Source: an uncultured Campylobacter sp. (GTDB taxonomy: Bacteria; Campylobacterota; Campylobacteria; Campylobacterales; Campylobacteraceae). Taken from it: a stretch of DNA of 47,606 bases. This document shows, in pieces, positions 7,465 through 25,601 of the stretch. Within the stretch, counting starts at the first letter, position 1; the number at the start of each line of letters is the position of its first letter. A program made the position numbers and the translations under genes. The notes under the pieces were generated by a model. That model worked only from the letters and a program-made list of their open reading frames with translations, did not search any database and had not been told where the DNA came from. The stretch covers positions 1 through 47,606 of the forward strand of contig CAKVAF010000015.1 in assembly GCA_934718785.1 (NCBI GenBank). The letters are read 5' to 3'.

Positions 7465-7480
7465 AAAAACATTAAAACTT

Positions 7481-7565
7481 CGTCATTACAAAAAGGCCCA
7501 AGCAATCTATATTTTAATGATAAAATCAAAGAATAGATTGCCACGCCTTGATTTGCTCGTAATGA
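7481..7565. repeat. Family B palindromic unit, degenerate
   Basis: Arms CGTCATTAC...AAGCAATCTAT and ATAGATTGCC...CTCGTAATGA face each other around an AT-rich centre. The inner stem of the right half is poorly conserved, suggesting an older copy. Confidence 0.7.
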
Positions 7566-7608
7566 AACACTACCAAAAACCAGAATAAATTTCCTTACAT
7601 ACCCTTAA

Positions 7609-7765: not shown

Positions 7766-7789
7766 TTTTTACGAATTCTTGCAAACATC

Positions 7790-8515: not shown

Positions 8516-8571
8516 TCATTCACCTTTATTTTCATAAGAAAAACTGTAATTTTTATTTTATTTACTCAAAT

Positions 8572-8600
8572 TTAAAACCCGCGCCGCTGTTTTTGAATTT
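8572..8600 (+). repeat. Family A short repeat, copy A3
   Basis: AAAACCCGCGCCGCTGTTTT followed by TGAATTT, directly abutting a B unit. Confidence 0.8.
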
Positions 8601-8700
8601 GTCATCGCTTGGCTTTGAAAACGCGAAGCCATCCATAAATTAACAATAAAAATAAATTATAAATTGCCACGCCTTTGCTACGAAAATTCTTGCAATGACG
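8601..8700. repeat. Family B palindromic unit
   Basis: GTCATCGCTTGG...GCGAAGCCATCCATAA on the left and AAATTGCCACG...TTGCAATGACG on the right, with an AT-rich centre of about 30 bases. Confidence 0.75.
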
Positions 8701-8728
8701 CAATTTAAATTCTAATTAAAAACTTTAA

Positions 8729-8847
8729 GGTGTAGGATTTTGAGATGATTTTAAGGGTTGTGCAGAAAAAATCGACTAAGGCTAGACAAGAAGTCTGCCG
8801 CAGGAGATTTTTTCAAACTCCCTTAAAAGCATCCAAAAGCCAACACC
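8729..8847. repeat. Family C 119-bp hairpin element (C2)
   Basis: Ends GGTGT/ACACC. Outer arms 8729-8757 and 8820-8847 pair along TTTTG-GATG-TTTTAAGGG. Inner arms GAAAAAATC/GATTTTTTC pair, and the core GGCTAGAC...GTCTGCC forms a helix with a one-base T bulge. It has the same length as C1. Confidence 0.8.
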
Positions 8848-8880
8848 GTTTTAAACTTTACTAAAAATTAAGCTTATTTA

Positions 8881-9693
<813 letters not shown>

Positions 9694-10422: not shown

Positions 10423-10504
10423 TGTTTAGCCTTTACTTTGAAATTATATAAAATTTAAGCTAAGAAAAAACTTATTTAAATAAATTTTAATATATTTTTT
10501 TAAC

Positions 10505-11305: not shown

Positions 11306-11418
11306 AAATTTCCTTTTTTAAAGTGTATTTTTAAAAATTCATTTCAAAATTTTATCTTTGTTTTTGAAATTTTGCCTTAAATTGATTGAAATTTTTAATT
11401 TTGCTTTTGTAAATTATA

Positions 11419-11457
11419 GATTGCCGCGCAAGGATAAATCCTTGCTCGCAATGACGG
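11419..11457. repeat. Family B half-unit with 8-bp stem
   Basis: GATTGCCGC, then GCAAGGAT (11428-11435), AA, ATCCTTGC (11438-11445), then TCGCAATGACGG. The stem is perfectly complementary and its sequence differs from the other copies. Confidence 0.8.
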
Positions 11458-11486
11458 ATATTAAAAATTTTCTCAATATAAATTTA

Positions 11487-11514
11487 CAAAACTCGCGCCG
11501 CTGTTTTATGATTT
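11487..11514 (+). repeat. Family A short repeat, copy A4
   Basis: AAAACTCGCGCCGCTGTTTT followed by ATGATTT, 35 bases beyond the znuC stop codon in the znuC-znuB gap. Confidence 0.8.
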
Positions 11515-11548
11515 TCTTAAAATTTAGCAAATTTTTAAATTTAAACTT

Positions 11549-12316
11549 CTACGAAATTCTGTAATCTGTTTTCTGCAATCCGTTGTCCGTATCGCAAAGG
11601 CAGGTTTTAAGGCTCATTTCCACATCACAAAAATGCGAATGATTTTCATATAAATGCTTTAAAAATGCTGAATTTTGCCTTGAGTTTTCATGCAAAACAA
11701 GCTCTTTGTTGAGATAAGCGATTTTGTTCGCGTAGGCAAGGGCGAGATTGATATCGTGGCAAATAACGATGATACCGATATTTTCAGCGTGTAAGCACGC
11801 TAAAAGCTCGAAAATGGCGACTGCGGTTTTGCTATCCACGCTTGCGGTAGGCTCATCCAAAATCAAAAGCTTGCAATCACTTATGAGTGCGCGCGCGATA
11901 AAGGCGCGCTGTCTCTCGCCGCCGCTAAGCTGGCTCACGCGCTTTTCTTTAAGCCTTAAAATGCCCATTTTATCAAGCATTTGCTCTGCTTTTTCTCTGT
12001 CTTTTTTGCTGTAAAAGCCGAAAATCTTTTCGTCCACAAGCCCCATTAAGACAAGTTCTTCTACGCAAATGTCAAAATTTAAATTAGGCTCTGTGTTTTG
12101 TGAGACATAAGAAATTTCGGTGTTTGAAATGAATTTATCAATGCCTTTTTTAAGGGGCAAAATACCCAAAATAAGCTTCACAAGCGTGGATTTACCGCCC
12201 CCATTAGGTCCTATGATGGCTAGAAAGTCCTTGTTATCATAGCTCAGGCTTACATTTTCAAGTACTTTTTGAGCGCCATAACTAAAGTTTAAGCTCTTTA
12301 TCTCTAAAAGTTTCAT
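11549..12316 (-). CDS. znuC: Zinc ABC transporter ATPase ZnuC
   Basis: A 255-residue ABC ATPase with Walker A GPNGGGKST, signature LSGGERQR, Walker B LLILDEPTASVD and switch His in VICHDINLAL, the pattern of the Zn/Mn importer class. The last ~35 residues (CDVEMSLKTCLCDTDNGLQ) carry several Cys and form a tail of uncertain role. Start ATG at 12316 with AAAGGATATGA upstream. It lies 56 bases after the NicO-type fusion gene in the same orientation. From memory it matches Cj0142c. Confidence 0.9.
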   Translation of the reverse strand: MKLLEIKSLNFSYGAQKVLENVSLSYDNKDFLAIIGPNGGGKSTLVKLILGILPLKKGIDKFISNTEISYVSQNTEPNLNFDICVEELVLMGLVDEKIFGFYSKKDREKAEQMLDKMGILRLKEKRVSQLSGGERQRAFIARALISDCKLLILDEPTASVDSKTAVAIFELLACLHAENIGIIVICHDINLALAYANKIAYLNKELVLHENSRQNSAFLKHLYENHSHFCDVEMSLKTCLCDTDNGLQKTDYRIS

Positions 12317-12372
12317 TCATATCCTTAAAAGCTTTATTATAGCAAATTTTGTTTTTGAAATAAATTTATGCC

Positions 12373-13863
12373 TTAAAAAACTGCCATTTTTGCATTAAAA
12401 AAGATAAAAAATCCCAACAAAATCATAAAAATAAGCGCGATGTATTCTAAAAAAATCCTATATTTTGTCCTTAGAGCTAAATTTATCCTAAGGGCAAAAA
12501 GTCCGCACACAAAAAGCACAAAAGCCATTCCAAGTGCTATAAAAACAGCACTTAAAAGAGCCTTACTAGTGCCAAATTCAAAGGCTAGGCTAAATACAAG
12601 CACCATAGTAGGACAAGGCACAGCTCCAGCTGCTATGATAAGGGCAATTTCGCTAAATTTATTTTTAGCTTTTAAATTAAGCTTAATGATTTTTTGATTT
12701 TTCTTTGCAAAAATGATTGAATTTTTATTTTTCATTTCATTATTTTTAAAAATGAGTTGAGAATGTCTATCACAACTTAGGCATTTTTTATCATTTTTTA
12801 AAATCTTTTTACTTAAAAGATAAAGAGAAATAAAGATGATTAAAATACTTGAAAACTGCGTTACAATAAGGCTTGAGTTCGCATTTAAATTTCTAGCTAA
12901 AGTTTTTAGTATAAAAAAGGCGGTGAAAACCAGCAAAAAAGCACTCATTATATGCACTAAAGCCACTTTAAAAGCAAAGCTTAAAGCCTTAAGATAAGAG
13001 CCGCCAAAGGCTAGAAAATACGAGCTTACAAGCAGTTTTGAATGACCCGGTGCAGCCGCGTGAAACATACCATAACAAAGACTTAATATCATAAGAATAA
13101 GTATGCTAAAAAAGCTATTTGAATGAATTTCATCTTTCAAAAGAGCTATAAAATAAGCATTTAAAGTTCTAAGTTTTATTAAAATACTTTGTAAAAAACT
13201 TTCATTTTTGTTTAAATTTTCTTGTGAAATTTTTTGAGTATTTATATCATTATTTTTATATAAATTATCATCATTTATGCTATTTGTATAGCTTAAAAAA
13301 CTCACATTTAAATTTGCATTATTTAAAAGATATAAATTTTCTTTAAGCTTCAAAGGCGCAGTATTTAAAAAGAAAAAATCAAAAAAGCCCTCATCATCAA
13401 AGATTTTAATGGCTAAAGGGCTTTTTAAATCAGCATCTAAAATAAGGGTGTATTCATAAAGCAAAGTGGCGTTACTCTCTTTATTTTCAAGGCTTAGACT
13501 TTGTTGATCAAGCTTAAATTTAAGAGCCTTTGCCTGCTTTAAATTATTTTTTGCACTTTCATAGATAAAGCTTAGCTGATTTTTCGCATTCACATAGTCT
13601 TTTAAGGCTTTTTCTATGCCCTTAAATTCTACTTCATCAAATTTTAAATTGCCATTCATATCATAATTTTGAAGCAAAATTTCACTAAACTGGGGCGAAA
13701 AACTCCAAGCCAAACTCAGCTTTTTTAGCCTTAAATTTTCATCCACGCTAGCATCTTTAATGAAAACATGCGCACTAGGCGTATAAGCAGCACATAAAGC
13801 ACAAGCCTTAGCAAAATTTGCAAAGCAAAAAATAAGAGCAAAAATTTTAATAATATTTTTCAA
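12373..13863 (-). CDS. DUF1007 / NicO-type (RcnA-like) metal transport fusion protein
   Basis: The 496-residue protein has two parts. After a signal-like N-terminus (to about residue 20, then CALC) comes a ~200-residue soluble part resembling DUF1007, with an EF-hand-like loop DMNGNLKFDEVE at residues 68-79. The C-terminal half is a membrane transporter of the NicO/RcnA nickel-cobalt type. It has HAAAPGHSK (268-276), the counterpart of the usual HxxxPGHGK, then further hydrophobic segments and AAGAVPCPTMVLVF. Its place between znuA and znuC suggests a part in divalent metal handling, perhaps zinc, though the family is best known for nickel or cobalt. The coding sequence is AT-rich and Asn/Lys-rich in the linker (residues 190-225). 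I do not recall this gene inside the C. jejuni znu cluster. Confidence 0.75.
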   Translation of the reverse strand: MKNIIKIFALIFCFANFAKACALCAAYTPSAHVFIKDASVDENLRLKKLSLAWSFSPQFSEILLQNYDMNGNLKFDEVEFKGIEKALKDYVNAKNQLSFIYESAKNNLKQAKALKFKLDQQSLSLENKESNATLLYEYTLILDADLKSPLAIKIFDDEGFFDFFFLNTAPLKLKENLYLLNNANLNVSFLSYTNSINDDNLYKNNDINTQKISQENLNKNESFLQSILIKLRTLNAYFIALLKDEIHSNSFFSILILMILSLCYGMFHAAAPGHSKLLVSSYFLAFGGSYLKALSFAFKVALVHIMSAFLLVFTAFFILKTLARNLNANSSLIVTQFSSILIIFISLYLLSKKILKNDKKCLSCDRHSQLIFKNNEMKNKNSIIFAKKNQKIIKLNLKAKNKFSEIALIIAAGAVPCPTMVLVFSLAFEFGTSKALLSAVFIALGMAFVLFVCGLFALRINLALRTKYRIFLEYIALIFMILLGFFIFFNAKMAVF

Positions 13864-13906
13864 AATTTTTCTTTATTTTTTATCATTTTAAAGCCTTTAA
13901 TAAAGC

Positions 13907-14815
13907 TTAATTTTTACTTAAAATCTCAGCACTTTTTAAAAGCTCATTTTCACAGTCCGCGCTTAAATGATCAATTTCTAAAACCTGTGCGTCAAGCTCT
14001 TTAGTTAAGGCTCTTGCAGCATTTTGAGCAAAGCCTTTTTGCACGAAAATCGTTTTAATCTTTTCTTTTTTAGCCATCTCAATCAAAGCTTTCAAATCCC
14101 TTGCTTTAGGCTCTTTGCCCTCAAGTTCTACAGGAATTTGCACTAAGTTATAGCGCGCGGCAAAATAGCCCCAGCTTGGATGATAAACGATGAATTTTTT
14201 GCCCGCTTTATCCTTTAAAAGTGCCGCGATTTTAACATTTAAGGCGTCAAGTTCTTTGTTAAATTTTTCTAAATTTGTTTGAAATTTAACCCTTTCTTGC
14301 GGATATTTTGCGCTAAGCGTGTTAGCTATGGTGCTTGCCTGCGTTTTTACTAAAATAGGATCAAGCCAAATGTGCGGGTCGCTGCTTTCATGGGCGTGTG
14401 AATGCGCTTCGTGGTGTGCGCTAGGGTTTTCATCGTTTTGGTGTTCGTGTTTTTTATGAGAATGCGCTTCGTGCGAATGTTCAGCAAAGCCTAAAAGTTT
14501 GATATTTTTTCTCAAATCCACTATTTCAAGGTGCTTAAAAAGGCTTTGAAATTTATGCATCATAGGCTTTTCAAACTCAAGTCCGGTGGTAAAATAAATA
14601 TCGCTTTTTTCAAGCTTTGATATGGTAGCGGGCTTGAAATCGATATTGTGCTCATCTGTATTTGGCGGCACGATGACATTAATTTCAGCAAAATCGCCGG
14701 CGATTTTTTTTACAAAAAAAGCTTGCGGGGGAATGCTCACGCTAATGATAGGCTTAGCAAATAATATGAGATTAAAACTCATTAAACTAGCTAATAATAT
14801 GAAAATCTTTTTCAT
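13907..14815 (-). CDS. znuA: Periplasmic zinc-binding protein ZnuA
   Basis: A 302-residue cluster A-I solute-binding protein for zinc. It has a signal peptide (MKKIFILLASLMSFNLILFA), the first ligand region PNTDEHNIDFKPATISKLEKSDIYF, and a His/Glu-rich loop at about residues 112-142 that is the zinc-chelating hallmark. DPHIWLDP and VYHPSWGYFAARY follow, with the remaining His ligands. Start ATG at 14815 has AAAGGAGAAAA upstream. It is the first gene of the zinc cluster and reads away from zur. A perfect palindrome (14911-14927) sits directly upstream of its -10 box, so Zur repression is likely. Confidence 0.93.
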   Translation of the reverse strand: MKKIFILLASLMSFNLILFAKPIISVSIPPQAFFVKKIAGDFAEINVIVPPNTDEHNIDFKPATISKLEKSDIYFTTGLEFEKPMMHKFQSLFKHLEIVDLRKNIKLLGFAEHSHEAHSHKKHEHQNDENPSAHHEAHSHAHESSDPHIWLDPILVKTQASTIANTLSAKYPQERVKFQTNLEKFNKELDALNVKIAALLKDKAGKKFIVYHPSWGYFAARYNLVQIPVELEGKEPKARDLKALIEMAKKEKIKTIFVQKGFAQNAARALTKELDAQVLEIDHLSADCENELLKSAEILSKN

Positions 14816-14900
14816 TTTTTCTCCTTTGAAGTTTAAATTTAAAGGCTCTAAATGCCTTAAACAAGTGATTTTAAAGCCTTTAAAATTTTTAAGATTTGAA

Positions 14901-14906
14901 ATTATA
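14901..14906 (-). promoter_or_regulatory. -10 box of the znuA promoter
   Basis: On the minus strand the sequence reads ATGT-TATAAT, a full extended -10, 86 bases before the znuA ATG. It abuts the palindromic operator. Confidence 0.6.
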
Positions 14907-14910
14907 ACAT

Positions 14911-14927
14911 GTGCAACTTAGTTGCAC
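14911..14927. promoter_or_regulatory. Probable Zur operator
   Basis: GTGCAACTTAGTTGCAC is a perfect palindrome of two 8-base arms around one central base, in the spacer between znuA and the Fur-family regulator. A further half-site AAGTTGCAT follows at 14938-14946. Its position next to the znuA -10 box fits repression. Confidence 0.75.
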
Positions 14928-15086
14928 CTTAAAAAATAAGTTGCATTAAAAATTTTTGATTTTCTTAAAAACGCTTGATTTTAAGGAGTAAATTTTGAAA
15001 AAATATTATAATTTTGCCTTAAATTTAATGAAAAAAGTGTAAAATAAAGCAAAAAATTTTAAGATTTTTACCTAAAAAGGCGAGCG

Positions 15087-15428
15087 ATGAAAGCTTTAAA
15101 TTTGCTTAAAGATAACGACATAGCCATTACAGATTTGCGCCTTCAAATGCTTGAGATTTTAAGCAAAGCAAGCAAGCCCTTAAGCCTTGATGATTTCAAG
15201 CTTGAAGCGAACAAAACGACATTTTACCGCAATATGCAGCTTTTTGAAGAGCGTGGCATAGTCAGCAAAAGCACCTTTGAGCGCAAGAGTTTTTACGAGC
15301 TGAGCTCGCATTCAAAGGCGCATTTTATCTGTGATGTGTGCCATAAAATCACGAATTTTCAAATGCCAAAGATCAAAGGCAAGATTAAAAGTGTCGTGGC
15401 TAAGGGCGTTTGCGAGGATTGCGGCTGA
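15087..15428 (+). CDS. zur: Fur-family regulator, probably the zinc repressor Zur
   Basis: A compact 113-residue Fur-family protein. The N-terminal winged helix contains the recognition-helix region NKTTFYRNMQLFEERGIVSK. The C-terminal part has HSKAHFICDVC and VCEDCG, the paired CxxC motifs that hold structural zinc. It is shorter than Fur and lacks the His-rich tail, as many Zur proteins do. Zinc as the ligand is inferred from its divergent place beside znuA and the palindrome between them. Start ATG at 15087 follows the weak AAAAAGGCGAGCG. Confidence 0.8.
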   Translation: MKALNLLKDNDIAITDLRLQMLEILSKASKPLSLDDFKLEANKTTFYRNMQLFEERGIVSKSTFERKSFYELSSHSKAHFICDVCHKITNFQMPKIKGKIKSVVAKGVCEDCG

Positions 15429-15454
15429 GTTTTAAAATGATTAATTAATCAATT

Positions 15455-15484
15455 TAAAAAACAGCAGCGCGAGTTTTGGAATTT
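15455..15484 (-). repeat. Family A short repeat, copy A5
   Basis: Reverse orientation, AAAACAGCAGCGCGAGTTTT, 20 bases upstream of a B unit. Confidence 0.8.
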
Positions 15485-15504
15485 GAATAAATTTAAAAGG
15501 TCCT

Positions 15505-15617
15505 GTCATTGCGAAGTCTTTTTGTCATTGTAAGTCGCAGCGAAGCAATTCATAATTTAATAGCAAATTCAAAGAGTGGATTGCCACGACTTGACAAAGT
15601 CAAGTCTCGCAATGACG
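15505..15617. repeat. Family B palindromic unit
   Basis: The left arm GTCATTG...GCGAAGCAATTCAT is partly duplicated. The right half is GATTGCCAC + GACTTGAC (15588-15595), AAA, GTCAAGTC (15599-15606) + TCGCAATGACGG, with a perfect 8-bp stem. Confidence 0.8.
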
Positions 15618-15626
15618 GGGCTAGTT

Positions 15627-15743
15627 TCGTCATTGCGAGAAGCGAAGCGACGAAGCAATCCATAGTTTATTTTTAAATTTTATTTTTATTTTCGTAAAAT
15701 TTTAATGGATTGCCGCGCGAGCAAAGCTCGCTCGCAATGACGA
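15627..15743. repeat. Family B full palindromic unit (117 bp, best copy)
   Basis: Left arm TCGTCATTGCGAG...CAATCCATAG, AT-rich centre, right arm AATGGATTGCCGC + GCGAGC (15717-15722), AAA, GCTCGC (15726-15731) + TCGCAATGACGA. The outer arms are exact inverted repeats, and the centre is nearly identical to that of the unit at 20988. Confidence 0.85.
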
Positions 15744-15907
15744 GTTGGTAGGATAGATTGGCACGCCAAAACTGCGTTTTATCTCGCAAGAACGGCTATT
15801 TAAATTATCGACACATTCAAGTTTTCGCGCAATGACGAATGCTTATTTTAAAATTTACACTCAATTCACACAAAAAGAGCAAAATTTCGCATATTAAAGG
15901 AGAAAAA

Positions 15908-16576
15908 ATGGCGGCTAAAATTCTTTTATTAGAAGATGATTTAAGCATTAGCGAGATTATGGAAGAATATTTAAGTGATGAGGGCTTTGAAGTGAGCTTA
16001 GTAAATGACGCGCAAGAAGCCTTAAATGAGGCTTATGAGAAAAACTATGATCTTTGGATTTTAGATGTAAAAGTGCCTTTGGGAGATGGATTTTCCTTGC
16101 TTAAAGAGCTTCGCGCTGCTGGCAAAAGCACGCCGGCTATATTTTTAACCTCGCTAAATACGGCTGAGGATCTAAAACAAGGCTTTGATACAGGCTGTGA
16201 TGATTATATTAAAAAGCCCTTTGAGCTAATTGAGCTTAAAGCGCGCATTGAAAGCATTTTGAAGCGAAATTTTTCGCATAAAAATGAAGATTTTGAAGAT
16301 TTAAAAAATGGCTATAAATTTGCGCTAAATTCACAAATTCTTTATCACAATGACAAAGCCTTACCCCTGCCAAGCAAGGAAATTAGATTATTAGCACTAC
16401 TTTTAAAGCATAAAAATGAATTTTTAAGCACAGAGAAAATTTTTAACGAGCTTTGGGACTATGATGAAGAGCCTAGCGAGCTTTCATTAAGAGTGTATGT
16501 AAAAAATTTGCGTAAAATTTTAGGCAAGGATAATATCATCAATCAGCGCGGCAGGGGCTATAGCTATGTTTACTAA
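15908..16576 (+). CDS. OmpR-type response regulator
   Basis: A 222-residue two-component regulator. The receiver domain has acidic pocket D10-D11, phospho-acceptor D53 (LWILDVKVP), the Thr in IFLTSLN and the Lys in DYIKKPF. The C-terminal winged helix (residues ~130-222) ends RVYVKNLRKILGKDNIINQRGRGYSYVY, a typical Trans_reg_C ending. I chose ATG 15908, preceded by AAAGGAGAAAAA. The upstream in-frame ATG at 15839 lies in repeat DNA and would add an unrelated 23-residue leader. It overlaps the kinase gene by 11 bases. It resembles the DccR/CrdR group, but I cannot place it certainly. Confidence 0.9.
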   Translation: MAAKILLLEDDLSISEIMEEYLSDEGFEVSLVNDAQEALNEAYEKNYDLWILDVKVPLGDGFSLLKELRAAGKSTPAIFLTSLNTAEDLKQGFDTGCDDYIKKPFELIELKARIESILKRNFSHKNEDFEDLKNGYKFALNSQILYHNDKALPLPSKEIRLLALLLKHKNEFLSTEKIFNELWDYDEEPSELSLRVYVKNLRKILGKDNIINQRGRGYSYVY

Positions 16577-17789
16577 AAAGGTCATCGCACAAATTTTAGC
16601 TCTTTATTTAACGACAACTGGCATTTTTCTTATCATTTTTTTTGTGATTTGGCATCAAAAACTTTTGGATAATCTCACAAACGAGCACACCAGAGTGCTT
16701 AAAGATGCCCATAGAAACATAGTCTTAAGTATATTAAATGCTAAGCAAACTCCTATAGAACAAACTTGCAAAAATATAGCAAGCGTTTCAAGTATTAAAT
16801 TTGCGATACTTGATGAAAGGCAAGTTTTATGCTCGGATCTAGATTTTGCACTCGATGATATCAATGTAAGTCTCAGGCAGCAGGGCATTTACAAGGAGCA
16901 TATTTTTTATTTGGCGGCGATGAATCCAAGTGCTTATTATCTCAACACACTTAAGGATAGAAAAGAATTAAGCATACAAAATGGGGCTTTAAGAACCTTT
17001 ATTCAAGGCCAAGATGTGAGCAAAGAGCTTCTTTATATCAGGCTTTGGCTGGGCTTTGCTCTGCTTTTTAGCTTTTTGATTTTGGCTTTGGTGAGCTTTT
17101 TTTTGGTGAAAATCGCGCTCAAGCCCTTAAATGAGAAAATCAGCACTTTAAATTCTTTCATCAAGGACTTCACACACGAGATAAACACGCCTTTAAGCGT
17201 GATTTTACTAAGCATTGAACAAATTGAGCAAAATGATGGTAAGGTCGCTGAAAACAAGCTTAAAAGAATGAAACTGGCTTCAAAAACACTCTCACAAACT
17301 TATTCTGATTTAATCTTTTACACCTTCCCAGATACGATAGCTTCGCAAGATGAAGAGCTTAAAATGAAAGATTTAATCCAAGAAAGACTAGAATATTTTA
17401 AACTCTTTTTTGAGCAAAAAAAGCTTGAAATCAGCGCAAATTTAGATGATAGCACACTTTTTGCAAGCAAAAATAAAATCAACAAACTCCTTGATAATCT
17501 CATCAGCAACGCGATAAAATATAATAAAAAAGGCGGTTTTATCAAAATCAATTTATATCAAAACTGCCTAAGTATCCAAGACAGCGGCTGTGGGATAGAA
17601 GAAAAAAATTTAAAAGCCATATTTAGCCGCTACGCAAGGTTCAATCAAGATCAAGGTGGCTTTGGCATAGGGCTTTCTTTGGTGCAAGGCATTTGCAAGG
17701 AGTATCATATCGAGCTTGATTGCACTTCAGCACTCAATAAGGGCAGCAAATTTGAACTAAAATGGCAAAAAAAATTCGTAAAAGCTTGA
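16566..17789 (+). CDS. Sensor histidine kinase
   Basis: A 407-residue membrane kinase. Transmembrane segments lie at about residues 8-29 and 159-181, bounding a ~130-residue periplasmic sensor region. No clear HAMP domain follows, only a short linker. H-box is FTHEINTPLSV with phospho-His H204. ATPase motifs: N-box DNLISNAIKYN, G1 IQDSGCGI, F-box IFSRYARF, G2 GFGIGLSLV. It is translated from an ATG inside the regulator gene, so the two form a coupled pair. The signal is not deducible. Confidence 0.9.
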   Translation: MFTKKVIAQILALYLTTTGIFLIIFFVIWHQKLLDNLTNEHTRVLKDAHRNIVLSILNAKQTPIEQTCKNIASVSSIKFAILDERQVLCSDLDFALDDINVSLRQQGIYKEHIFYLAAMNPSAYYLNTLKDRKELSIQNGALRTFIQGQDVSKELLYIRLWLGFALLFSFLILALVSFFLVKIALKPLNEKISTLNSFIKDFTHEINTPLSVILLSIEQIEQNDGKVAENKLKRMKLASKTLSQTYSDLIFYTFPDTIASQDEELKMKDLIQERLEYFKLFFEQKKLEISANLDDSTLFASKNKINKLLDNLISNAIKYNKKGGFIKINLYQNCLSIQDSGCGIEEKNLKAIFSRYARFNQDQGGFGIGLSLVQGICKEYHIELDCTSALNKGSKFELKWQKKFVKA

Positions 17790-17867
17790 TTTATTTGCTG
17801 AAATTTGCTAAAATGAAGCTTAAAAATTTCAAAAATATTTTTAAAATTTAGCATTTTTTGATAAAAG

Positions 17868-17885
17868 TTGGAACGGCTTTTGCTT
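17868..17885 (+). promoter_or_regulatory. Sigma54 (RpoN) promoter of the flgB operon
   Basis: TTGGAACGGCTTTTGCTT matches the Campylobacter sigma54 consensus, with GG at 17870-17871 and GC at 17882-17883 (12-base register). It lies 35 bases before the flgB start, as expected for rod genes under RpoN and FlgR. Confidence 0.85.
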
Positions 17886-17919
17886 ATAACTTGGCAAGAA
17901 TTAAACGAAGGATTAAAAA

Positions 17920-18354
17920 ATGATGGTCGAACCTTTTAAGTCTAAAGAGCTTGTTACAAGGGCTTTAGCGGGTAGAAATCTTAGAAACCAGCTTATCAAT
18001 TCAAACCTTGCAAATGTTGATACTCCTTTTTATAAGTCAAGGGACATCGAGTTTGAAACCGCTTTAGTCAAGCGCTCGGGCGAGATTTTTAAAACAGGCA
18101 GGGACTTTGAACTTAAAATGGCGCAGACTAGCGAGGGACATCAAGAGCCGTGGAAATTCCCAGATCCAAATAAGTCTATCATTTATCTAAGAGATGGGCA
18201 TTTGGCAAGAAATGACGCCAACACGGTGGATTTAGATGTCGAAACGACAGAACTTAGCAAAAATACAGCGATGATTAACGCCCTTGATGGCGTGCTTAGA
18301 AGACAAGGCAATATCTTTACAGCCATTGTCGATGCGAGCTCGAAGCTGAGTTAA
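17920..18354 (+). CDS. flgB: Flagellar basal-body rod protein FlgB
   Basis: A 144-residue proximal rod protein. It has the SNLANVDTPFYKSRDIEFETAL motif near the N-terminus that marks rod/hook proteins, and the C-terminal amphipathic helix ELSKNTAMINALDGVLRRQGNIFTAIVDASSKL. It is exported by the flagellar type III apparatus. First gene of flgB-flgC-fliE, ten bases before flgC. A second ATG follows immediately at 17923, so the start is uncertain by one codon. The leader carries AAGGATTAAAA and a sigma54 promoter. Confidence 0.95.
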   Translation: MMVEPFKSKELVTRALAGRNLRNQLINSNLANVDTPFYKSRDIEFETALVKRSGEIFKTGRDFELKMAQTSEGHQEPWKFPDPNKSIIYLRDGHLARNDANTVDLDVETTELSKNTAMINALDGVLRRQGNIFTAIVDASSKLS

Positions 18355-18364
18355 GGAGTGAAAG

Positions 18365-18862
18365 ATGGCTTATTTAAGTGATTTTGATATCAGCGGGTAT
18401 GGCTTAAGCGCGCAACGCTTTAGGCTCAATGTCATCAGCTCAAATATCGCTAATGCTAACACCACGCGCACGGCTGAGGGCGGACCTTACAGACGCCGCG
18501 AAGTGATTTTCAAAGCGACTGAGTTTAATGAAATTTTAAATAAACAGATTAAAAATGACAATAATATGCTAGAATATGAAAATCCACTCAACGATCCAAG
18601 CTCGCAAAAGACGGCTGATCCTAGCATTATGAGCGTGGTTGTGGATAAGGTGGTGCGCGATGATAAAGAATTTCGTATGAAATACGATCCTAGCCACCCA
18701 GACGCTAATGCTGAGGGCTATGTGGCGTATCCTAATATCAATCCTGTGATTGAAATGGCGGATTTGATCGAAGCCACGCGCGCTTATCAAGCTAATGTCG
18801 TGGCGTTTAACAGCACAAAGCAAATCGCAAACAGCGCGATTGATTTATTAAGGGGACAGTAA
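18365..18862 (+). CDS. flgC: Flagellar basal-body rod protein FlgC
   Basis: A 165-residue rod protein. It has an N-terminal SGYGLSAQRFRLNVISSNIANANTTRT motif and C-terminal MADLIEATRAYQANVVAFNSTKQIANSAIDLLRG, both characteristic of FlgC. It follows flgB after ten bases with AAGGAGTGAAAG as ribosome binding site, and leads into fliE with a one-base gap. Confidence 0.96.
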   Translation: MAYLSDFDISGYGLSAQRFRLNVISSNIANANTTRTAEGGPYRRREVIFKATEFNEILNKQIKNDNNMLEYENPLNDPSSQKTADPSIMSVVVDKVVRDDKEFRMKYDPSHPDANAEGYVAYPNINPVIEMADLIEATRAYQANVVAFNSTKQIANSAIDLLRGQ

Positions 18863-18863
18863 G

Positions 18864-19160
18864 ATGATCAATAATATAAATAATATAAACAACACAAGCG
18901 GTGCAAACAACAGCACTTCAAAGACAAATTCAAACATAGGTGATGAATTTGCTAAAATGCTCAAGCAGTCTATTAGTGATTTAGATAAAACGCAAAAAAC
19001 AGGCGAAGCGGCGATGAGCGATATCGCCACAGGTCAGGTTAAAGACTTGCACCAAGCAGCCATTGCGATCAACAAGGCTGAAAGCTCGATGAAATTTATG
19101 CTTGAAGTGCGCAATAAAGCCATCAATGCTTATAAAGAAATCACCAGAACACAAATTTAA
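18864..19160 (+). CDS. fliE: Flagellar hook-basal body protein FliE
   Basis: A 98-residue protein linking the MS ring to the rod. The C-terminal half (GQVKDLHQAAIAINKAESSMKFMLEVRNKAINAYKEI) is the conserved FliE signature. The N-terminus is low-complexity (Asn/Ser/Thr), as common in this family. The start overlaps the ribosome-bound region of the flgC stop (GGGGACAGTAAG). Confidence 0.94.
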   Translation: MINNINNINNTSGANNSTSKTNSNIGDEFAKMLKQSISDLDKTQKTGEAAMSDIATGQVKDLHQAAIAINKAESSMKFMLEVRNKAINAYKEITRTQI

Positions 19161-19166
19161 TCCTTA

Positions 19167-20954
19167 ATGAATGATAGCAACGACACTAGAGCCCCAAAGC
19201 TTCTTTTTGCTTTTGCTATGGTTCTAGTTTTTATGTGCCTTTTTTTAAGCTCGACTTTTTTTCTCACTTCCAAAAGAGCCATTCCCAACACCGAAAAAGA
19301 CCAAACCGACATCGCCTTAAGAGGCTCTATCATCACAGCGGATAATTTTGCTATTGCAAGCTCAAAGAAAATTTACCGCGCAGAAATCGATCTAAGAAGC
19401 ATTGATTTAGGCAAGCTTGAGCTTTTTTTAAAACTTTTTGAAATTTATAGTGGAGCCAATAAAGCTCAAATGACAGACATCAAAAAGCGCCTAGAAATTG
19501 CTTTTAAAAAGAAAAATTATAATTTTATTTTACTGCAGGATTTAAATTCCAAAGAAGCAAATTATCTTAAAGAACTTTCTAAAAAGCTCTATGTGCAGGG
19601 CTTTTTCAAGGCTTTTACCAACTCAAATGATAGGGTGGAAACAAGGGGCTTAAGTGTCATCGAGCATAAAGAAGATCGAAGCTATATGTCAAAAGACGCG
19701 CTCACACCAGCCATAGGCTACACGCGCGCTGTTTTAGATGATGGTATTTTAAAAAATATCGGCGTTAAAGGGCTTGAAAAATACTATGATGAGTGCTTGC
19801 AAGCCTTTCAGGATGAGAAAATTCAAGGGCTTAAAGACATAGGTGGTAATATCATTTTAAGTCTAGACTCGCTTAAGCAGCAAAAAATCAATGGCTGTAA
19901 TTTGCATTTAAATGTCTATTTAAAGCTTCAAAAAAGCATTGAAAAGATGATCGATCTTAAAAATGTGGATTTAAACGCCAGTGAAATTATCGTCGGCGTT
20001 ATGCAAAGCAGCACTGGAAAGCTCATAGCGCTAGCAAGCTCAAGGCGCTATGATCCAAGTAACCGTGGCAAGGATTTATCCGTGCTTAATGCAAGTGCTA
20101 TAGAATATGGCTATGAGGTAGGCTCAGTCATCAAGCCCTTTATTTTTACCACAGCTTTAAGCTTAAATAAGCTTAATTTAAATGAGACTATAAACACAAA
20201 CAACGGCGTTTTCAAGCTTGGACGCTTTACTATAAAAGATGATCATCCTGCCAAGCAAATGAATCCTGAAGAAATTTTAATGTATTCTTCAAATGTGGGA
20301 ATGATACAAATTGCTAGAAGACTCAGCGGCTTTGAGCTCATCTCAGGACTTAAAATCTTTGGCTTTGGAGAAAAAACGGGCGTTGATTTACCTTATGAGC
20401 AAAAGGGCGAGCTGCCAAGTTCTAATATCAGAGAGATTGAAAAGTCTGTTTTAAGCTATGGTTATGGGCTTAAAGCTACCTTTATGCAACTACTTGCAGC
20501 CTATAATGTCTTTAATAATAATGGCTTTTATATAGCTCCTCACTTAGGCGATAAATTTTATCAAAATAATAAATTCACAAGCCTAGAAGAAGGCTTTAAG
20601 CCTCAAAAAATTCTCTCATCAAGCGTGGCAAAGCAAATTCAAAGCATACTCATATCCACTATTGAAAAGGGCACGGGACGCAAAGCCTATACCGAGGGTC
20701 TTGTAATAGGTGGCAAAACAGGCACAGCACGCATCGCTCAAAAGGGCGGTTACTCATCCACGCGCTACAACGCAAGCTTTTTTGGCTTTGCAAATGATAG
20801 CTCAAACGCCTATACCATAGGAGTTTTAGTGCGTACACCCAAAAAGGCTTATAGTTACTACGCTGCACAAAGTGCCTTGCCAATTTTTAAAGAAACTATT
20901 AATATACTTGTAAAAGAAGATTTTTTAAAGCCTGAAACAGCGGCGCAAAATTAA
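19167..20954 (+). CDS. pbpB: Class B penicillin-binding protein (FtsI/PBP2-type transpeptidase)
   Basis: A 595-residue peptidoglycan transpeptidase. It has an N-terminal membrane anchor (residues ~10-32), a PBP-dimer region starting near RGSIITADNFAIASS, and a transpeptidase domain with S320-V-I-K323 (nucleophile Ser), S374-S-N376 and K517-T-G519. Together these identify a division- or elongation-type class B PBP. It follows fliE after six bases with almost no Shine-Dalgarno, so it is probably translated by coupling from the flagellar transcript. From memory the same neighbour relation exists in C. jejuni (Cj0526c-Cj0525c). No SEDS partner is in the window. Confidence 0.92.
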   Translation: MNDSNDTRAPKLLFAFAMVLVFMCLFLSSTFFLTSKRAIPNTEKDQTDIALRGSIITADNFAIASSKKIYRAEIDLRSIDLGKLELFLKLFEIYSGANKAQMTDIKKRLEIAFKKKNYNFILLQDLNSKEANYLKELSKKLYVQGFFKAFTNSNDRVETRGLSVIEHKEDRSYMSKDALTPAIGYTRAVLDDGILKNIGVKGLEKYYDECLQAFQDEKIQGLKDIGGNIILSLDSLKQQKINGCNLHLNVYLKLQKSIEKMIDLKNVDLNASEIIVGVMQSSTGKLIALASSRRYDPSNRGKDLSVLNASAIEYGYEVGSVIKPFIFTTALSLNKLNLNETINTNNGVFKLGRFTIKDDHPAKQMNPEEILMYSSNVGMIQIARRLSGFELISGLKIFGFGEKTGVDLPYEQKGELPSSNIREIEKSVLSYGYGLKATFMQLLAAYNVFNNNGFYIAPHLGDKFYQNNKFTSLEEGFKPQKILSSSVAKQIQSILISTIEKGTGRKAYTEGLVIGGKTGTARIAQKGGYSSTRYNASFFGFANDSSNAYTIGVLVRTPKKAYSYYAAQSALPIFKETINILVKEDFLKPETAAQN

Positions 20955-20987
20955 GACGGTGTTATTTTTCGTGTCGCTTTTTTGCTT

Positions 20988-21110
20988 GTCATTGCTGGGC
21001 TTTTAAAAACGCGAAGCAATCCATAGTTTATTTTTAAATTTATAGTTTTATTTTCGTAAAAATTTAATGGATTGCCGCGAATTTGCTTTTGTAAATTCTC
21101 GCAATGACGA
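20988..21110. repeat. Family B full palindromic unit
   Basis: Left arm TGTCATTGCTGGG...GCGAAGCAATCCATAG, then an AT-rich centre nearly the same as in 15627-15743. Right half: GATTGCCGC + GAATTTGC (21079-21086), TTTT, GTAAATTC (21091-21098, one G-T pair) + TCGCAATGACGA. Confidence 0.85.
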
Positions 21111-21119
21111 AACTATCCC

Positions 21120-21230
21120 TGTTATTGCGAGCGCAGCGAAGCAATCCATTCTTTACTGAGTCATTTAAATTTTTTCTAAAGTAAATTTTGTAGATTGCCA
21201 CGACAAAACTGCGTTTTGTCTCGCAATGAT
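21120..21230. repeat. Family B full palindromic unit
   Basis: Left arm GTTATTGCGAGCGCAGCG then AAGCAATCCATT. Right half: GATTGCCAC + GACAAAAC (21202-21209), TGC, GTTTTGTC (21213-21220) + TCGCAATGATG. The stem is a perfect 8 bp. Confidence 0.85.
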
Positions 21231-21240
21231 GCAGAGTTAA

Positions 21241-21280
21241 GATTGTCACGAAAATTCTACGAATTTTCTCGCAATGGCGG
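21241..21280. repeat. Family B half-unit
   Basis: GATTGTCAC + GAAAATTC (21250-21257), TAC, GAATTTTC (21261-21268) + TCGCAATGGCGG. The stem is perfect and again has its own sequence. Confidence 0.8.
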
Positions 21281-21350
21281 CTAAATTTAATTATCAACAC
21301 ACTCAAGCAACGTTCGCAATGACGAAATTTCTACACTCTATTTTCTAACT

Positions 21351-21373
21351 CAAAACTCGCGCCACAGTTTTCG
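21351..21373 (+). repeat. Family A short repeat, copy A6
   Basis: CAAAACTCGCGCCACAGTTTT, where the AAAACT/AGTTTT ends are complementary. Adjacent to the 3' end of the radical SAM gene. Confidence 0.75.
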
Positions 21374-21388
21374 TATACTTTAAAGCTC

Positions 21389-22420
21389 TCAAGGCTCAAG
21401 TGTCAAAGGCTCAGCAGTTTGCACCGCTACATTGATAGCCTTTTTAGGCGCATCCATATCATGACAATAATCACAGGCTTTGAAAAAATCCTGCGCATAA
21501 AAGCTAAAAAATCTTTCTTTTTTATCTTCTAAATTGATAAAATCACCCTTAAATTCATCAAGCCCTTTAAGCCTTGAGAGTGAGCTTGCCACAGGACATA
21601 CGAAAACCGCGCCTTTTGAAGCATTTTTAAGAAATTTTCCCTCATCAGCGCGCACGCCCTCGGCACTCATCAAGCTTACACAAGGCATTTTACAGGCTAT
21701 GAAATTTTTAATAATATCTTTTTTAGAACGTCCTCTTTTATAAATCTTACCCGGATCGCTCCATTTAGCATCCGCCCCACTTGAATCCAGCGAATAAGCG
21801 ATTTTGTATTTTTTCAAATTTGTAAAAATACTTTTGTGTTGAAGCTTAAGCTTTAAATTCGGCGATAAAGAATAATCAGAAATTGTAATTTTCCTAAGCT
21901 TTTTAGCCTTTGAAAGAGCCTTTAAAAGCTCTGTGCTAAAATCAATCGTGCCATTGCTTACGAGAGTGAAAGTTTTAATTTGCTTTTGTTGATTCAAAAA
22001 CTCGACAAGTTCGGGCAAAGGCTGGAATAACAAAGGCTCACCGCCGATAATCCTTAGCCTTTGAACGCTATCTACACGTTCAAATAAAGCCTCAAGCGCA
22101 TTTTTAAGCCCATCAAGTGTGGCGGCGTATTGATTTGTAGGCTGAAAATACTGCATTAAGTTATTGCAAGAAACGCAGCACATCGTGCATTTGGTCGTTA
22201 AAACAAGCTCTAAATAAGGGATATCAACTTTTCCTTTAAGCACACGTTTTTGAAAATAAGACTTAAGAAAGAATTTTTTCATCAGCGCAGCATAGGGCAA
22301 TTTAAAAATTCTCAAAAAGCCCCTTTTACCGCTTAAATAAGAGCTATGCCAAGCGATATTTGGCTTGATATAGCGCTCATTAAAAAGCTCATTTTCTATG
22401 TATTTTTGATAATTAGACAT
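21389..22420 (-). CDS. Radical SAM protein of unknown function
   Basis: A 343-residue radical SAM enzyme. The cluster motif CxxxCxxC is C78-C82-C85 (CTMCCVSC), followed by RIIGGEPLLF, the GGE motif that contacts SAM, and FTLVSNGT. The C-terminal part holds more cysteines (FIACKMPC, FVCPVA, ACDYCHD), consistent with an auxiliary SPASM/twitch-type iron-sulfur site. I placed the start at ATG 22420, which has TAAGGAATTTT before it. The upstream in-frame ATG at 22447 overlaps GATATAAT, more likely the -10 box. Substrate unknown. It stands alone between two family B repeat arrays, and no peptide precursor gene was seen beside it. Confidence 0.85.
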   Translation of the reverse strand: MSNYQKYIENELFNERYIKPNIAWHSSYLSGKRGFLRIFKLPYAALMKKFFLKSYFQKRVLKGKVDIPYLELVLTTKCTMCCVSCNNLMQYFQPTNQYAATLDGLKNALEALFERVDSVQRLRIIGGEPLLFQPLPELVEFLNQQKQIKTFTLVSNGTIDFSTELLKALSKAKKLRKITISDYSLSPNLKLKLQHKSIFTNLKKYKIAYSLDSSGADAKWSDPGKIYKRGRSKKDIIKNFIACKMPCVSLMSAEGVRADEGKFLKNASKGAVFVCPVASSLSRLKGLDEFKGDFINLEDKKERFFSFYAQDFFKACDYCHDMDAPKKAINVAVQTAEPLTLEP

Positions 22421-22504
22421 AAAATTCCTTAAATTTAAAAGACTCATTATATCTAAATTTAATTAATTTTAAAGCCTTAAATGCTGATTTTAATCTTTAA
22501 AAAT

Positions 22505-22533
22505 CCTAAAACTGCGGCGGGCGTTTTGAAATT
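22505..22533 (-). repeat. Family A short repeat, copy A7
   Basis: AAAACTGCGGCGGGCGTTTT then GAAATTT, reverse orientation and a diverged core. Confidence 0.65.
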
Positions 22534-22550
22534 TAAAAGAATAAAAATTA

Positions 22551-22655
22551 CGTCATTGCTGGGCTTTTAAAAAACGCGAAACAATCTATAGTTTAATGGC
22601 AAAAATAAAGAGTGGATTGCCACGAATTTGCTTTCGCAAATTCTCGCAATGACGA
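22551..22655. repeat. Family B full palindromic unit
   Basis: Left arm CGTCATTGCTGGG...GCGAAACAATCTATAG. Right half: GATTGCCAC + GAATTTGC (22624-22631), TTTC, GCAAATTC (22636-22643) + TCGCAATGACGA. The stem is a perfect 8 bp. Confidence 0.85.
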
Positions 22656-22678
22656 GTTTTCGATAATATTTAATTATA

Positions 22679-22715
22679 GATTGCCGCGTGTTGCAAGCAA
22701 CGCTCGCAATGACGG
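22679..22715. repeat. Family B half-unit
   Basis: GATTGCCGC + GTGTTGC (22688-22694), AA, GCAACGC (22697-22703, one G-T pair) + TCGCAATGACGG. Confidence 0.8.
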
Positions 22716-22845
22716 CTAAATTTAATTATCGACACATTCAGGCTCGTTCGCAATGACGCAGAGTTAAGATTATCGCGCAAATTCTCGCAATGACGAGTGC
22801 AAAACTTTATCGCAAAAACCCTTATTTTGCAACGGTAAGTCCTAG

Positions 22846-25601
22846 TCAATATCTATACCCCACTTCAAGCCAAAATTGTCTGCCTGTTTCGTAGCTCAAG
22901 CTTGAAGAACGACTTAAATTTTTTGTATTTTGCTTAACATTTAAATTTACTTTATCCAAAACATTAAAAACATCAATATTGGCATAAAGGGTATTTTTCT
23001 TATATACTTCTTTTTCGATGCCTAGTCTTAAGTCCCAAGTAAAGCGCGTTGGGATACGATAATCTTCATAAACGCAAGCTGTTGCTTGTGTTGCACCACA
23101 AGGGCTAGGATTGTCAGGCGATTCTGTAGTTGCATTATAAGGCATTCTTACTCTAAAGAAATTATTTAGTGTCCAGTCTGTGTTTAAAAGTTTGATAGTA
23201 TGTGTGGTTGAAAATCTAAAGCTTAAAGGCTGAGCAAAATTTGTAACTGAAAGCTCACTTCTTCGCTGGACTGTGCCATTGTATTTAATCCAAGAATCTT
23301 GTGAAGGTGAAATTTTTTCATCCTTGTAATTATTATAAGATCTTTTTACATCTGTATAATCAAAAGCAAAATTAAAATAATTTAACATTGAACCTGACAT
23401 AAAAGGTGTATTGTTGCCAATAGTTAAAGTGATTACATCAGTATCTGACTCATCACTATTATCATAAGTGTAATATAAACAAGTACTTGAGCTATCTCTT
23501 TTACCACACTTATAACGCACTTCATCGCGTCCAAAACGATGAATATATTTGCTACTTACATTAAAAAGTCCCACTTCTTGTATCACGCCAAACATCAGCT
23601 CATCCGCATAAGGAATTTTAAGCTGCCTAAAGTCAAAACTATTTGCATGGCTATAATGATAATTCATATCCCCATTTGGATCGTCACCCCAAGGCAAAGA
23701 TTCTAAAGTTTTGCTCGCATCCGAGCGCATATAAAAACTTTCCAAGGCACTTTTACCTTGCGAAAGCTTATAAGCATACATATTGCGCCCATAGTAGCGG
23801 TTTGCTCCAAATGTAAATTGTGTGTTATATTTAAAATCTTCTTTTCCCCAAGGTGCTGTATAATTTGTACTAAAGCGCGGTGCAATAGGAGCTTTTTGCA
23901 TATAAGTATCATAGTCCATTCTAAGACCTAATCTTGTGGCTACGTCACCTTTGTTGCCTAAATCAAACCTGCTCTCATTTTCGATAAAAAAAGCAGTTTG
24001 AAAATTATCCATATCAATTTCACCTGCTTTATATTCTTCGATAGTGCTAAAAAATTGCCCATTATTAGAACCCCATTTATTTTCATCGGGCTTAGAATTT
24101 GAACACCAAATATCGCCTGCTTGGCAAGTGTAATTCGAGTTATCAAAACCTGTTGAGACATTATCCAATAATATAGCCTGCCCGCCTTGCCAAGAGTCTT
24201 TAAGCCTTTTAAAATAAGCGTAAGTATAAGAAAATTCAGTACCTATATTAAAGCCTGTTTCCCAAGTATCATCATAATAAGGTTCAAAATTTTGCGTGAG
24301 TTTAAGACTTAAATCTTGTTGTTTATTATCCTCATCCCCAAAACTTCCATAAGCTGAAGTAAAGCCATCACCCCAACTTTTTTCAGGTGAATAAATCCAG
24401 TTTTGAAGAATAGAACTTTCACTGCGACGTGATTCTTCCATATACGAAAAAAAACTTGTAATACTTGCAAAACCGAGCGAATTATTTATCGTGCCATCAA
24501 GTCCTAGCTGATGACCGCCATTTTTCATCGTAGTTTGTGAATTAATAGCATAATCTCTATAATAAACTCCAAGTTGTGGCATATAAGCATAACTTGCTTC
24601 TAAAGCCACATCATCACTCGCTTGATAATTTGTCTTAATGAAAAAATTATAGCTTTCGCGCTTTTGTGTTCTTTCTTCGCGTGCGAATTCTGAGTCTAAT
24701 TCACTTGAAACTTTAAGTGGGATAAAACTTTGTGTTGTGGTAAAGCTTGCGATGACACCTAGCTTATCATTGATTTTACTCTCTAAGCTTGAGCGAAAAG
24801 AATGTTTGATGAATTTGGGCTGATAATCTGTATTGCCTGAATTCAAAAAGTCTTCTTTTTTAAAAGTCGCTGTTTCATAAATGTGATACTTTGTAAGTGA
24901 AAAAGCGCCATCATTAGCATTTCCTTGCGAAATTTGATAGGCAAAATTGGCTCCAAAGTCCTTTTCAGCGCTCCTTGTCTCAGCTTCTACGACCCCGCCC
25001 GTAAAGCCCCCATAACTTGCGCCCACATTGCTATCTTGCACTTTTACGCTTTTAAGCAAGAAAGTATCGATATTTAACCCTTGAGAGCGTCCCATGGTAG
25101 AATCTCGAACATTTCCGGGATCACTACCTTCTGAAACTCCACTTAGGTCATTATTGATACTTTTGCCATCGAGTAAAAAAGAGTTTTGATAATAAAGTCC
25201 GCCAGAAATGCTGATATTTGGCGGAGTGATTTCGCCCGGAGTATTTGAACTCATCGCCCTTGTATCAAATTGTACATTGGGAGTCATTTTTAAAAGTGAA
25301 GTGATGTCGCCGTTACCATTTGGAGTGGTAGTAAGTTGTCTTTCGTTGATTTCTTCGCCACTTTGAAAAGGAAAGGTATTGGCTGTAATGACCGTTGCAT
25401 CAAGCCTGTAAGGCTCGTTGCTTGAATTTGTATCCAAGCTTTTTTGCGCGCTGATGCTTGAAGCATTAGAATTTGAAGCGCTGGTGCTTAAAACGCTATT
25501 TTTTAAATGCCCCCCCCCTGCGAATTTGCCGTGCTGTTTGTCTCAGCCAAAAGCAAACTTGAAAGCACAAAGGAAAGATAAATTTGTCTTTTAAATTTCA
25601 T
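22846..25601 (-). CDS. TonB-dependent outer-membrane receptor, phase-variable, OFF in this sequence
   Basis: The main frame (from 25437 down) is a 22-strand-type TonB-dependent receptor. It has a TonB-box-like YRLDATVIT, a plug domain (TSLLKMTPNVQFD, ISISGGLYYQNSFLLDGKSIN) and a long beta barrel ending in the aromatic RQFWLEVGYRY. The frame stays open upstream to a G9 tract. Beyond that, in another frame, lies ATG 25601 with AAAGGAT upstream and a signal peptide (MKFKRQIYLSFVLSSLLLA). With G9 the signal frame stops two codons after the tract. Ten Gs would join both into 918 residues. So expression switches by slippage. Cargo is probably an iron compound, because the divergent neighbour is ChaN-like. 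From memory it resembles Cj0178. Confidence 0.88.
25510..25518 (-). repeat. Homopolymeric G9 tract controlling the TonB receptor
   Basis: Nine C on the plus strand, G9 in coding sense, 29 codons after the ATG. A length of 7, 10 or 13 keeps the frame. Nine leads to GGC-ATT-TAA. The flanks (ATG before the C run, TG after it) match those of the tract at 6622. Confidence 0.9.

What the first reader, a model, noticed from the sequence alone, without database searches (positions are those of the whole stretch)
15579..22715. Family B half-units: conserved flanks around stems that differ in sequence yet stay self-complementary
At least eight half-units share GATTGCC(A/G)C on the left and TCGCAATGACG on the right. 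Between them lies a stem of 6-8 pairs whose sequence differs nearly every time: GACTTGAC/GTCAAGTC, GCGAGC/GCTCGC, GAATTTGC/GTAAATTC, GACAAAAC/GTTTTGTC, GAAAATTC/GAATTTTC, GAATTTGC/GCAAATTC, GTGTTGC/GCAACGC, and at 11428 GCAAGGAT/ATCCTTGC. Both arms change together while the flanks do not. This needs either strong selection on a hairpin or a copying mechanism that writes one arm from the other, such as hairpin-templated repair.
Basis: seen in the sequence. Interest (0 to 1): 0.75.

Follow-up and report, generated by a model that had tools for sequence, protein, structure and literature searches.

The report
REP hairpins with interchangeable tips
This bacterial chromosome carries short repeated DNA hairpins (REP-type repeats) that keep the same base but mostly carry different, still self-complementary tips; the tips likely move between copies as whole hairpins, and an as yet unknown hairpin-reading enzyme is predicted to need the folded shape of the tip rather than its letters.

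Summary
Ten half-units share the flanks (six exactly) and their inner stems covary: 24 cells with both arms changed against 9.3 in shuffles, 0 of 500 as high. The flanks recur in 73, 45 and 91 viral-contig stretches and 20 of 192 Patescibacteria genomes, where tips pair with their own arm far above shuffles. By tag, layout and base these are CGTC-tagged REPs, a described class without a known transposase (PMC3733652). Beyond the finding: (1) tips can be exchanged whole: two window dimers share 63 of 66 columns of base and spacer yet differ in both tips; other genomes show the same. (2) The loop is strand-specific: GNA on the CGTC strand 39 against 1, and 39 against 4; short halves are GCGNAGC in 67 of 89. 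(3) Orientation towards genes is only weakly biased (78:60 and 111:77). Best reading: a DNA hairpin read on one strand, probably by a TnpAREP-like enzyme, whose upper stem need only pair. The enzyme is unidentified and the window's genome was not held.

The parts
7480..7568 (.). diverged dimer: partner half (-, 7480-7510) and long half (+, 7533-7568)
   Evidence: covariance model R1, E 0.056 and 0.0086; dimer scan
8662..8700 (+). half-unit, tip only partly paired
11419..11456 (+). half-unit, tip GCAAGGAT/ATCCTTGC, outside the stated interval
15503..15553 (-). degenerate partner half of the dimer ending at 15617 (spacer type 2)
   Evidence: weak model match, E 0.75; alignment
15579..15617 (+). 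half-unit, tip GACTTGAC/GTCAAGTC
15628..15660 (-). partner half; CGTC strand carries the GCGAAGC mini-hairpin in its tip
15661..15707 (.). spacer type 1
   Evidence: alignment with 21021-21069
15708..15742 (+). half-unit, tip GCGAGC/GCTCGC
15756..15794 (+). degenerate half-unit, tip GCCAAAAC/GTTTTATC (5 apical pairs)
20988..21020 (-). partner half, tip shared with 22552-22589
21021..21069 (.). spacer type 1, second copy
21070..21109 (+). half-unit, tip GAATTTGC/GTAAATTC
21120..21146 (-). short partner half; CGTC strand carries GCGCAGC
21193..21231 (+). half-unit, tip GACAAAAC/GTTTTGTC, loop GCA on the CGTC strand
21241..21279 (+). half-unit, tip GAAAATTC/GAATTTTC, loop GTA on the CGTC strand
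22552..22589 (-). partner half, nearly the same tip as 20988-21020 on a different spacer
22590..22614 (.). spacer type 2
   Evidence: alignment with 15545-15578
22615..22654 (+). half-unit, tip GAATTTGC/GCAAATTC, loop GAAA on the CGTC strand
22679..22714 (+). half-unit, tip GTGTTGC/GCAACGC
22768..22795 (+). short or decayed half-unit
   Evidence: E 0.0011

Best explanation
These are CGTC-tagged REP dimers whose hairpins have a conserved base and a variable, mostly paired tip, and they likely serve as single-stranded DNA substrates of a still unidentified TnpAREP-like (HUH) nuclease that is predicted to read the CGTC tag, the basal stem, its internal loop and the tip loop, but not the letters of the upper stem. 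Shown: the half-unit on its CGTC strand reads CGTC, then ATTGC, a small uneven internal loop, a tip, and GCAAT; two halves stand tag-out around a spacer; tips covary; the loop obeys a one-strand rule in the large sets. Shown for a few pairs: tips differ wholesale while base and spacer stay nearly identical. Inferred: tips pass between copies by recombination or conversion through the conserved base, and selection at each mobilisation removes tips that do not fold. Not shown: the enzyme, and any movement in this organism.
For: Covariation in the window. Own-arm pairing above the best of 300 foreign-arm draws in 12 of 13 unit sets and above all 1000 shuffles in each of four sets. Reversed control pattern 0 matches in 192 genomes. 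Strand rule: GNA on the CGTC strand 39 against 1 among 130 distinct tips with an apical stem, mainly viral contigs, and 39 against 4 among 127 in Patescibacteria; counted per place, 121 of 165 odd-length tips GNA and 0 TNC, short halves GCGNAGC 67 of 89 with all four N, the reverse 0. GCGAAGC-type hairpins are known as extraordinarily stable DNA hairpins (PMC10527192, passages). The same mini-hairpin stands on the GTAG strand in REPs listed for Citrobacter, Enterobacter, Salmonella and Klebsiella in PMC2817692 (passages; the comparison is mine). E. coli TnpAREP: upper stem or loop swapped to its complement is still bound and cut, its removal abolishes binding, the unpaired bulge matters (PMC8266576). 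S. maltophilia TnpAREP: the first loop base G is critical, the reversed loop fails, stem letters have a moderate effect, a mismatch hurts. Tip exchange.
Against: No enzyme is tied to the repeat: of 34 loci of 1.7-3.4 kb around Y1_Tnp genes (30, 4), one holds a good unit (L293) and two hold doubtful matches; no transposase domain was found in 29 window ORFs by Pfam or in 7 more by NCBIfam. Tip swaps are rare: of 32 pairs with at least 90% flank identity, 23 have identical tips and 3 differ wholesale. A donor tip is visible in two cases only. Perfect palindromes are not the rule in every class: 51 of 78 CAC, 19 of 61 CGC and 20 of 111 TTC units. In the window the loop rule is weaker: 6 of 14 halves have GNA or GAAA, none TNC, the rest TT, TTT, AA or ACA; a looser cut over 60 distinct tips gives first base G in 26 and last base A in 33. 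The CGTC strand is also the more stable one under RNA parameters (159 of 176 units; DNA 140 of 176), so energy does not separate DNA from RNA. The CGTC strand is weakly biased to the coding strand: 78 to 60 between co-directional genes and 111 to 77 inside called ORFs, pooled p 0.005.
Confidence: 0.47

Rival explanations
1. Arm-from-arm copying: replication slips into the hairpin and writes one arm from the other (template switching), so any mutation in one arm is copied to the other and tips drift while staying paired.
For: L008 tandem array: a C-G to G-C flip in both arms with 60 of 60 flank bases identical. Double transversions inside otherwise identical tips, e.g. GGACTTCAGAAAGTCC against GGCCTTCAGAAAGGCC in G020. 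The mechanism is documented for RNA genes (PMC8794818, abstract and outline).
Against: It does not explain whole-tip and length changes at nearly identical flanks, nearly the same two tips on different spacers, or the strand-specific loop.
Confidence: 0.2
2. Slow compensatory drift alone: hairpin function is selected and paired changes accumulate one at a time; the units are simply old.
For: Most close pairs differ little or not at all in the tip; single mismatches and G.T pairs occur.
Against: Window dimers with 63 of 66 identical columns of base and spacer have unalignable tips on both sides; two L109 copies share 106 identical bases next to a tip that differs.
Confidence: 0.15
3. RNA-level element: a terminator or mRNA-protecting hairpin in which transcript pairing is selected.
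For: Window units lie between the main genes; the CGTC strand folds more stably as RNA too; a weak excess of the CGTC strand on the coding strand, 189 to 137 pooled, p 0.005. Di Nocera et al. hold that many REPs are plausibly transcribed.
Against: Terminator-like sites in 14800-22900 are at chance level, 9 against 8.4 in shuffles, and one overlaps a unit. The orientation excess is small (about 55-60%, also with ORF cut-offs of 80 to 200 aa) beside a loop rule that is nearly absolute on one strand, and the ORF caller is crude.
Confidence: 0.15

Closest known systems
CGTC-tagged REPs (Di Nocera, De Gregorio, Rocco 2013, PMC3733652)
   Same: CGTC at one end, A-T pairs at the foot of the stem, tag-out (HH) dimers often made of unlike halves, no linked transposase, spread over several phyla.
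   Different: In the text read here (parts 1-3 of 8, section 16 and passages) loops of 4-5 bases with some variant loops and stems are described; hypervariable paired tips, whole-tip exchange and a one-strand loop rule are not. Figure 2 itself is not held.
GTAG REPs / REPINs with RAYT (TnpAREP)
   Same: Single-strand hairpins with an unpaired tag, often a mismatch or bulge in the stem, compensated stems; some enterobacterial GTAG REPs also carry GCGNAGC.
   Different: Different tag, no RAYT neighbour found here.
IS200/IS605 hairpin ends and integron attC sites
   Same: A folded single DNA strand is read by structure with few fixed bases (discussed in PMC8266576).
   Different: No transposase or integrase gene linked.
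Neisseria dRS3 and Rickettsia RPE-4/RPE-6
   Same: Filed in the CGTC class by PMC3733652.
   Different: Not compared here.

Membership tests
CGTC-tagged REP | unpaired CGTC (or TGTC, CCTC) at one end | tested here: met
   CGTC in 7 of 10 long halves and in the partners at 15628 and 22552; others CGTT, CATC, CGCC, TGTT, TGTC (sequence)
CGTC-tagged REP | stem of 8-9 bp starting with two A-T pairs, loop of 4-5 | tested here: inconclusive
   A-T pairs at the foot are met; the stem is 5 bp, an uneven internal loop, then a tip of 2-8 pairs. The paper notes that it may view some paired bases as loop; its figure is not held
CGTC-tagged REP | short unpaired tail at the other end, mostly CCA | tested here: inconclusive
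   CCA in 4 of 10 long halves; CTA or similar in the rest
CGTC-tagged REP | HH dimers with 20-100 bp spacer | tested here: met
   pairing the model matches gives six dimers in the window, tags outward, one of them with a weak partner (E 0.75); four appear in the dimer listing
CGTC-tagged REP | high copy number in the genome | not testable with these tools
   no genome held for the window
GTAG REP with RAYT | GTAG tag | tested here: not met
   tags listed above
GTAG REP with RAYT | RAYT gene flanked by the repeats | tested here: not met
   no Y1_Tnp in 29 window ORFs by Pfam, none named in 7 more by NCBIfam; 1 of 34 Y1_Tnp loci elsewhere holds a good unit
intrinsic terminator | T run after the stem | tested here: not met
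   9 sites against 8.4 by chance in 14800-22900, one at a unit

The most novel reading that the evidence does not exclude
Each round of mobilisation rewrites the tips: the element is copied with its base and spacer intact while both hairpin tips are rebuilt as new self-complementary sequences, so that CGTC REPs are small diversity-generating elements driven by an undiscovered single-strand nuclease.
Probability: 0.07. Interest if true: 0.85.

Novelty: new variant of a known kind. Interest (0 to 1): 0.5.

Why it matters
CGTC REPs are spread over many phyla and have no known mover. A paired but letter-free tip with a one-strand GNA loop says what the missing protein should recognise, namely a folded single DNA strand, and so makes the search for it testable. 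It also gives natural series of copies in which whole-hairpin exchange, template switching and slow compensation can be told apart.

Tried and rejected
Finding the host genome: none is held; the one genome-contig scan with the PBP2 protein gave a distant Patescibacteria locus only. The window is called Campylobacterota-like from the flgB-flgC-fliE-PBP2 order (recalled) and is named by no call.

Rfam: no family at gathering score.

Link to replication strand: in viral and other loci the GATTGC strand of CRC-type units lay on the locally G-rich strand 153 to 63, but in three genomes with larger windows it was 33 to 38 (p 0.64), so I dropped it.

Link to Y1_Tnp: 16 of 20 genomes with the repeat have PF01797 against 77 of 172 without (p 0.004; tallied by me, test), but kinship and genome size are not controlled, and 1 of 34 gene loci has a good unit near it.

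Counting one-arm against two-arm changes over all tip pairs compares unrelated tips; I use single examples from it only. Plasmid records gave few units (4 in one Novosphingobium plasmid, 1 in a Methylosinus one, 0 in a Sinorhizobium one), too few for a strain comparison.

Full report
What is there. The flanks GATTGCC(A/G)C and TCGCAATGACG with up to two mismatches each mark ten half-units with full-length tips on the + strand of the window, and an eleventh short one. Written on the other strand, a half-unit is CGTC, ATTGC, a short uneven internal loop, a tip, GCAAT. A covariance model built from the ten finds partner halves on the - strand at 7480, 15627, 20986, 21119 and 22550 at E < 0.1, a weak one at 15503 (E 0.75), and nothing beyond 22.8 kb at E < 1. 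Pairing these gives six dimers, with the tags outward and the long-tip half on the + side in each.

Is it more than chance. On the alignment of ten units, covariation is 0.467 against 0.127 in shuffles and 24 cells are changed on both sides against 9.3, with 0 of 500 as high for both. The number of pairs with a two-sided change, 6 against 5.0, does not separate (159 of 500). All six lie in the tip helix of 8 pairs; the basal helix has none in 5 pairs.

How far it reaches. Patterns that fix only the flanks match 73, 45 and 91 stretches of viral contigs (some loci occur in two lists) and 20 of 192 Patescibacteria genomes, with 0 matches of the reversed pattern. For distinct tips of the viral CRC class, 36 of 83 form all four tested inner pairs, against a mean of 1.5 and a maximum of 6 in 1000 shuffles; for the TTC class 14 of 69 against 0.6. 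Over 13 unit sets, own-arm pairing exceeds every one of 300 foreign-arm draws in 12; the exception has four units. Not every class is a clean palindrome: loops of at most 4 in 51 of 78 CAC, 19 of 61 CGC and 20 of 111 TTC units. Many of the rest hold two unpaired positions (GTC...TCC) that read as tandem G.A on the CGTC strand.

The strand rule. Among 130 distinct tips with an apical stem in the set, which is mainly viral contigs and includes the window, three-base loops of the form GNA stand 39 times on the CGTC strand and once on the other; in Patescibacteria 39 against 4 among 127. Counted per place, 121 of 165 odd-length tips are GNA and none is TNC; short halves are GCGNAGC in 67 of 89, with N = A 41, C 13, G 9, T 4. 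In the window, 6 of 14 halves have GNA or GAAA, none TNC. GCGAAGC-type hairpins are known as extraordinarily stable DNA hairpins (PMC10527192, passages). REPs listed for several enterobacteria in PMC2817692 show the same motif on their GTAG strand (passages; the comparison is mine). Folding energies favour the CGTC strand under RNA parameters as well, so the rule alone does not prove DNA.

Orientation towards genes. With a crude ORF caller the CGTC strand is the coding strand in 78 and the template in 60 of 138 co-directional settings (p 0.15), and lies on the ORF strand in 111 of 188 places inside a called ORF (p 0.016); pooled 189 to 137, p 0.005. Over 473 places with ORF cut-offs from 80 to 200 aa the share stays near 55-60%. 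This is a weak excess, in favour of an RNA role or of spurious ORFs that the repeat itself makes; it is far from the near-absolute loop rule.

Tips exchanged whole. Window dimers at 15.6 and 21.0 kb share 63 of 68 aligned columns of base and spacer, 63 of 66 without the two edge columns, but differ wholly in both tips. The dimers at 21.0 and 22.5 kb share nearly the same two tips but have different spacers. In L064 two dimers share a 28-base spacer and differ in both tips. In G154 (L383, L386) 98.4% identity over 64 bases goes with unlike tips. In L014 95.8% over 143 bases does (90% over the nearest 60). In L109 106 identical bases lie next to a tip that differs and that in one copy equals the tip of the neighbouring unit. 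Against this, of 32 pairs with at least 90% flank identity 23 have the same tip, 3 differ wholesale, 1 has a two-arm flip, 1 differs in the loop, and 4 have one-sided changes, two of these out of register. So exchange happens but is not the rule for young copies.

How it probably works. E. coli and S. maltophilia TnpAREP show the matching recognition rules in vitro: upper stem needed but not its letters in the first, loop G and pairing in the second (PMC8266576, sections 13, 17 and 27). I infer that CGTC REPs are read in the same style by a protein not yet known. PMC3733652 states that CGTC repeats are not associated with transposase genes, and near 34 Y1_Tnp genes I found one good unit.

What is known already. 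Preserved palindromes suggesting complementary mutations are stated in PMC2817692 (passages), compensatory changes in REPIN hairpins in PMC3116915 (passages). PMC3733652 (parts 1-3 of 8, section 16, passages) defines the CGTC class and notes variant stems and loops; it names Sulfurovum but not Campylobacter. Paper searches returned none; one listed two, of which PMC10117815 was not opened; one listed 20 of 26 and 78 listed 15 of 811, by their titles none on these repeats. The library is partial, so absence from print is not shown.

Noticed in passing
G108 (L319-L331, L332-L349): All 14 pattern matches on this unnamed Patescibacteria chromosome lie on one strand, and G-C skew is negative at all 18 sampled points counted from 1 to 941 kb, as if the chromosome had a single replichore.
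   Followed up: partly
window 7480-22796: The repeat units found at E < 1 all lie in this stretch and none in the remaining 25 kb to the right; the long-tip halves all have the same orientation.
   Followed up: no
L057 2343-2455 and 3904-3995: Two dimers with near-identical spacers; one tip holds a hairpin-forming insertion of about 20 bases inside the tip of the other.
   Followed up: no
Patescibacteria genomes: Genomes with the repeat carry Y1_Tnp (PF01797) more often, 16 of 20 against 77 of 172, though of 34 gene loci looked at one has a good unit nearby.
   Followed up: partly
L111 2616-6302: Units with a non-palindromic repeated tip GTATATGCCCC, two of them in head-to-tail order, an exception to the pairing rule.
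   Followed up: no
viral-contig loci L006-L195: The GATTGC strand of CRC-type units lies on the locally G-rich strand 153 to 63 in a set that also includes other loci; three Patescibacteria genomes do not show it.
   Followed up: partly
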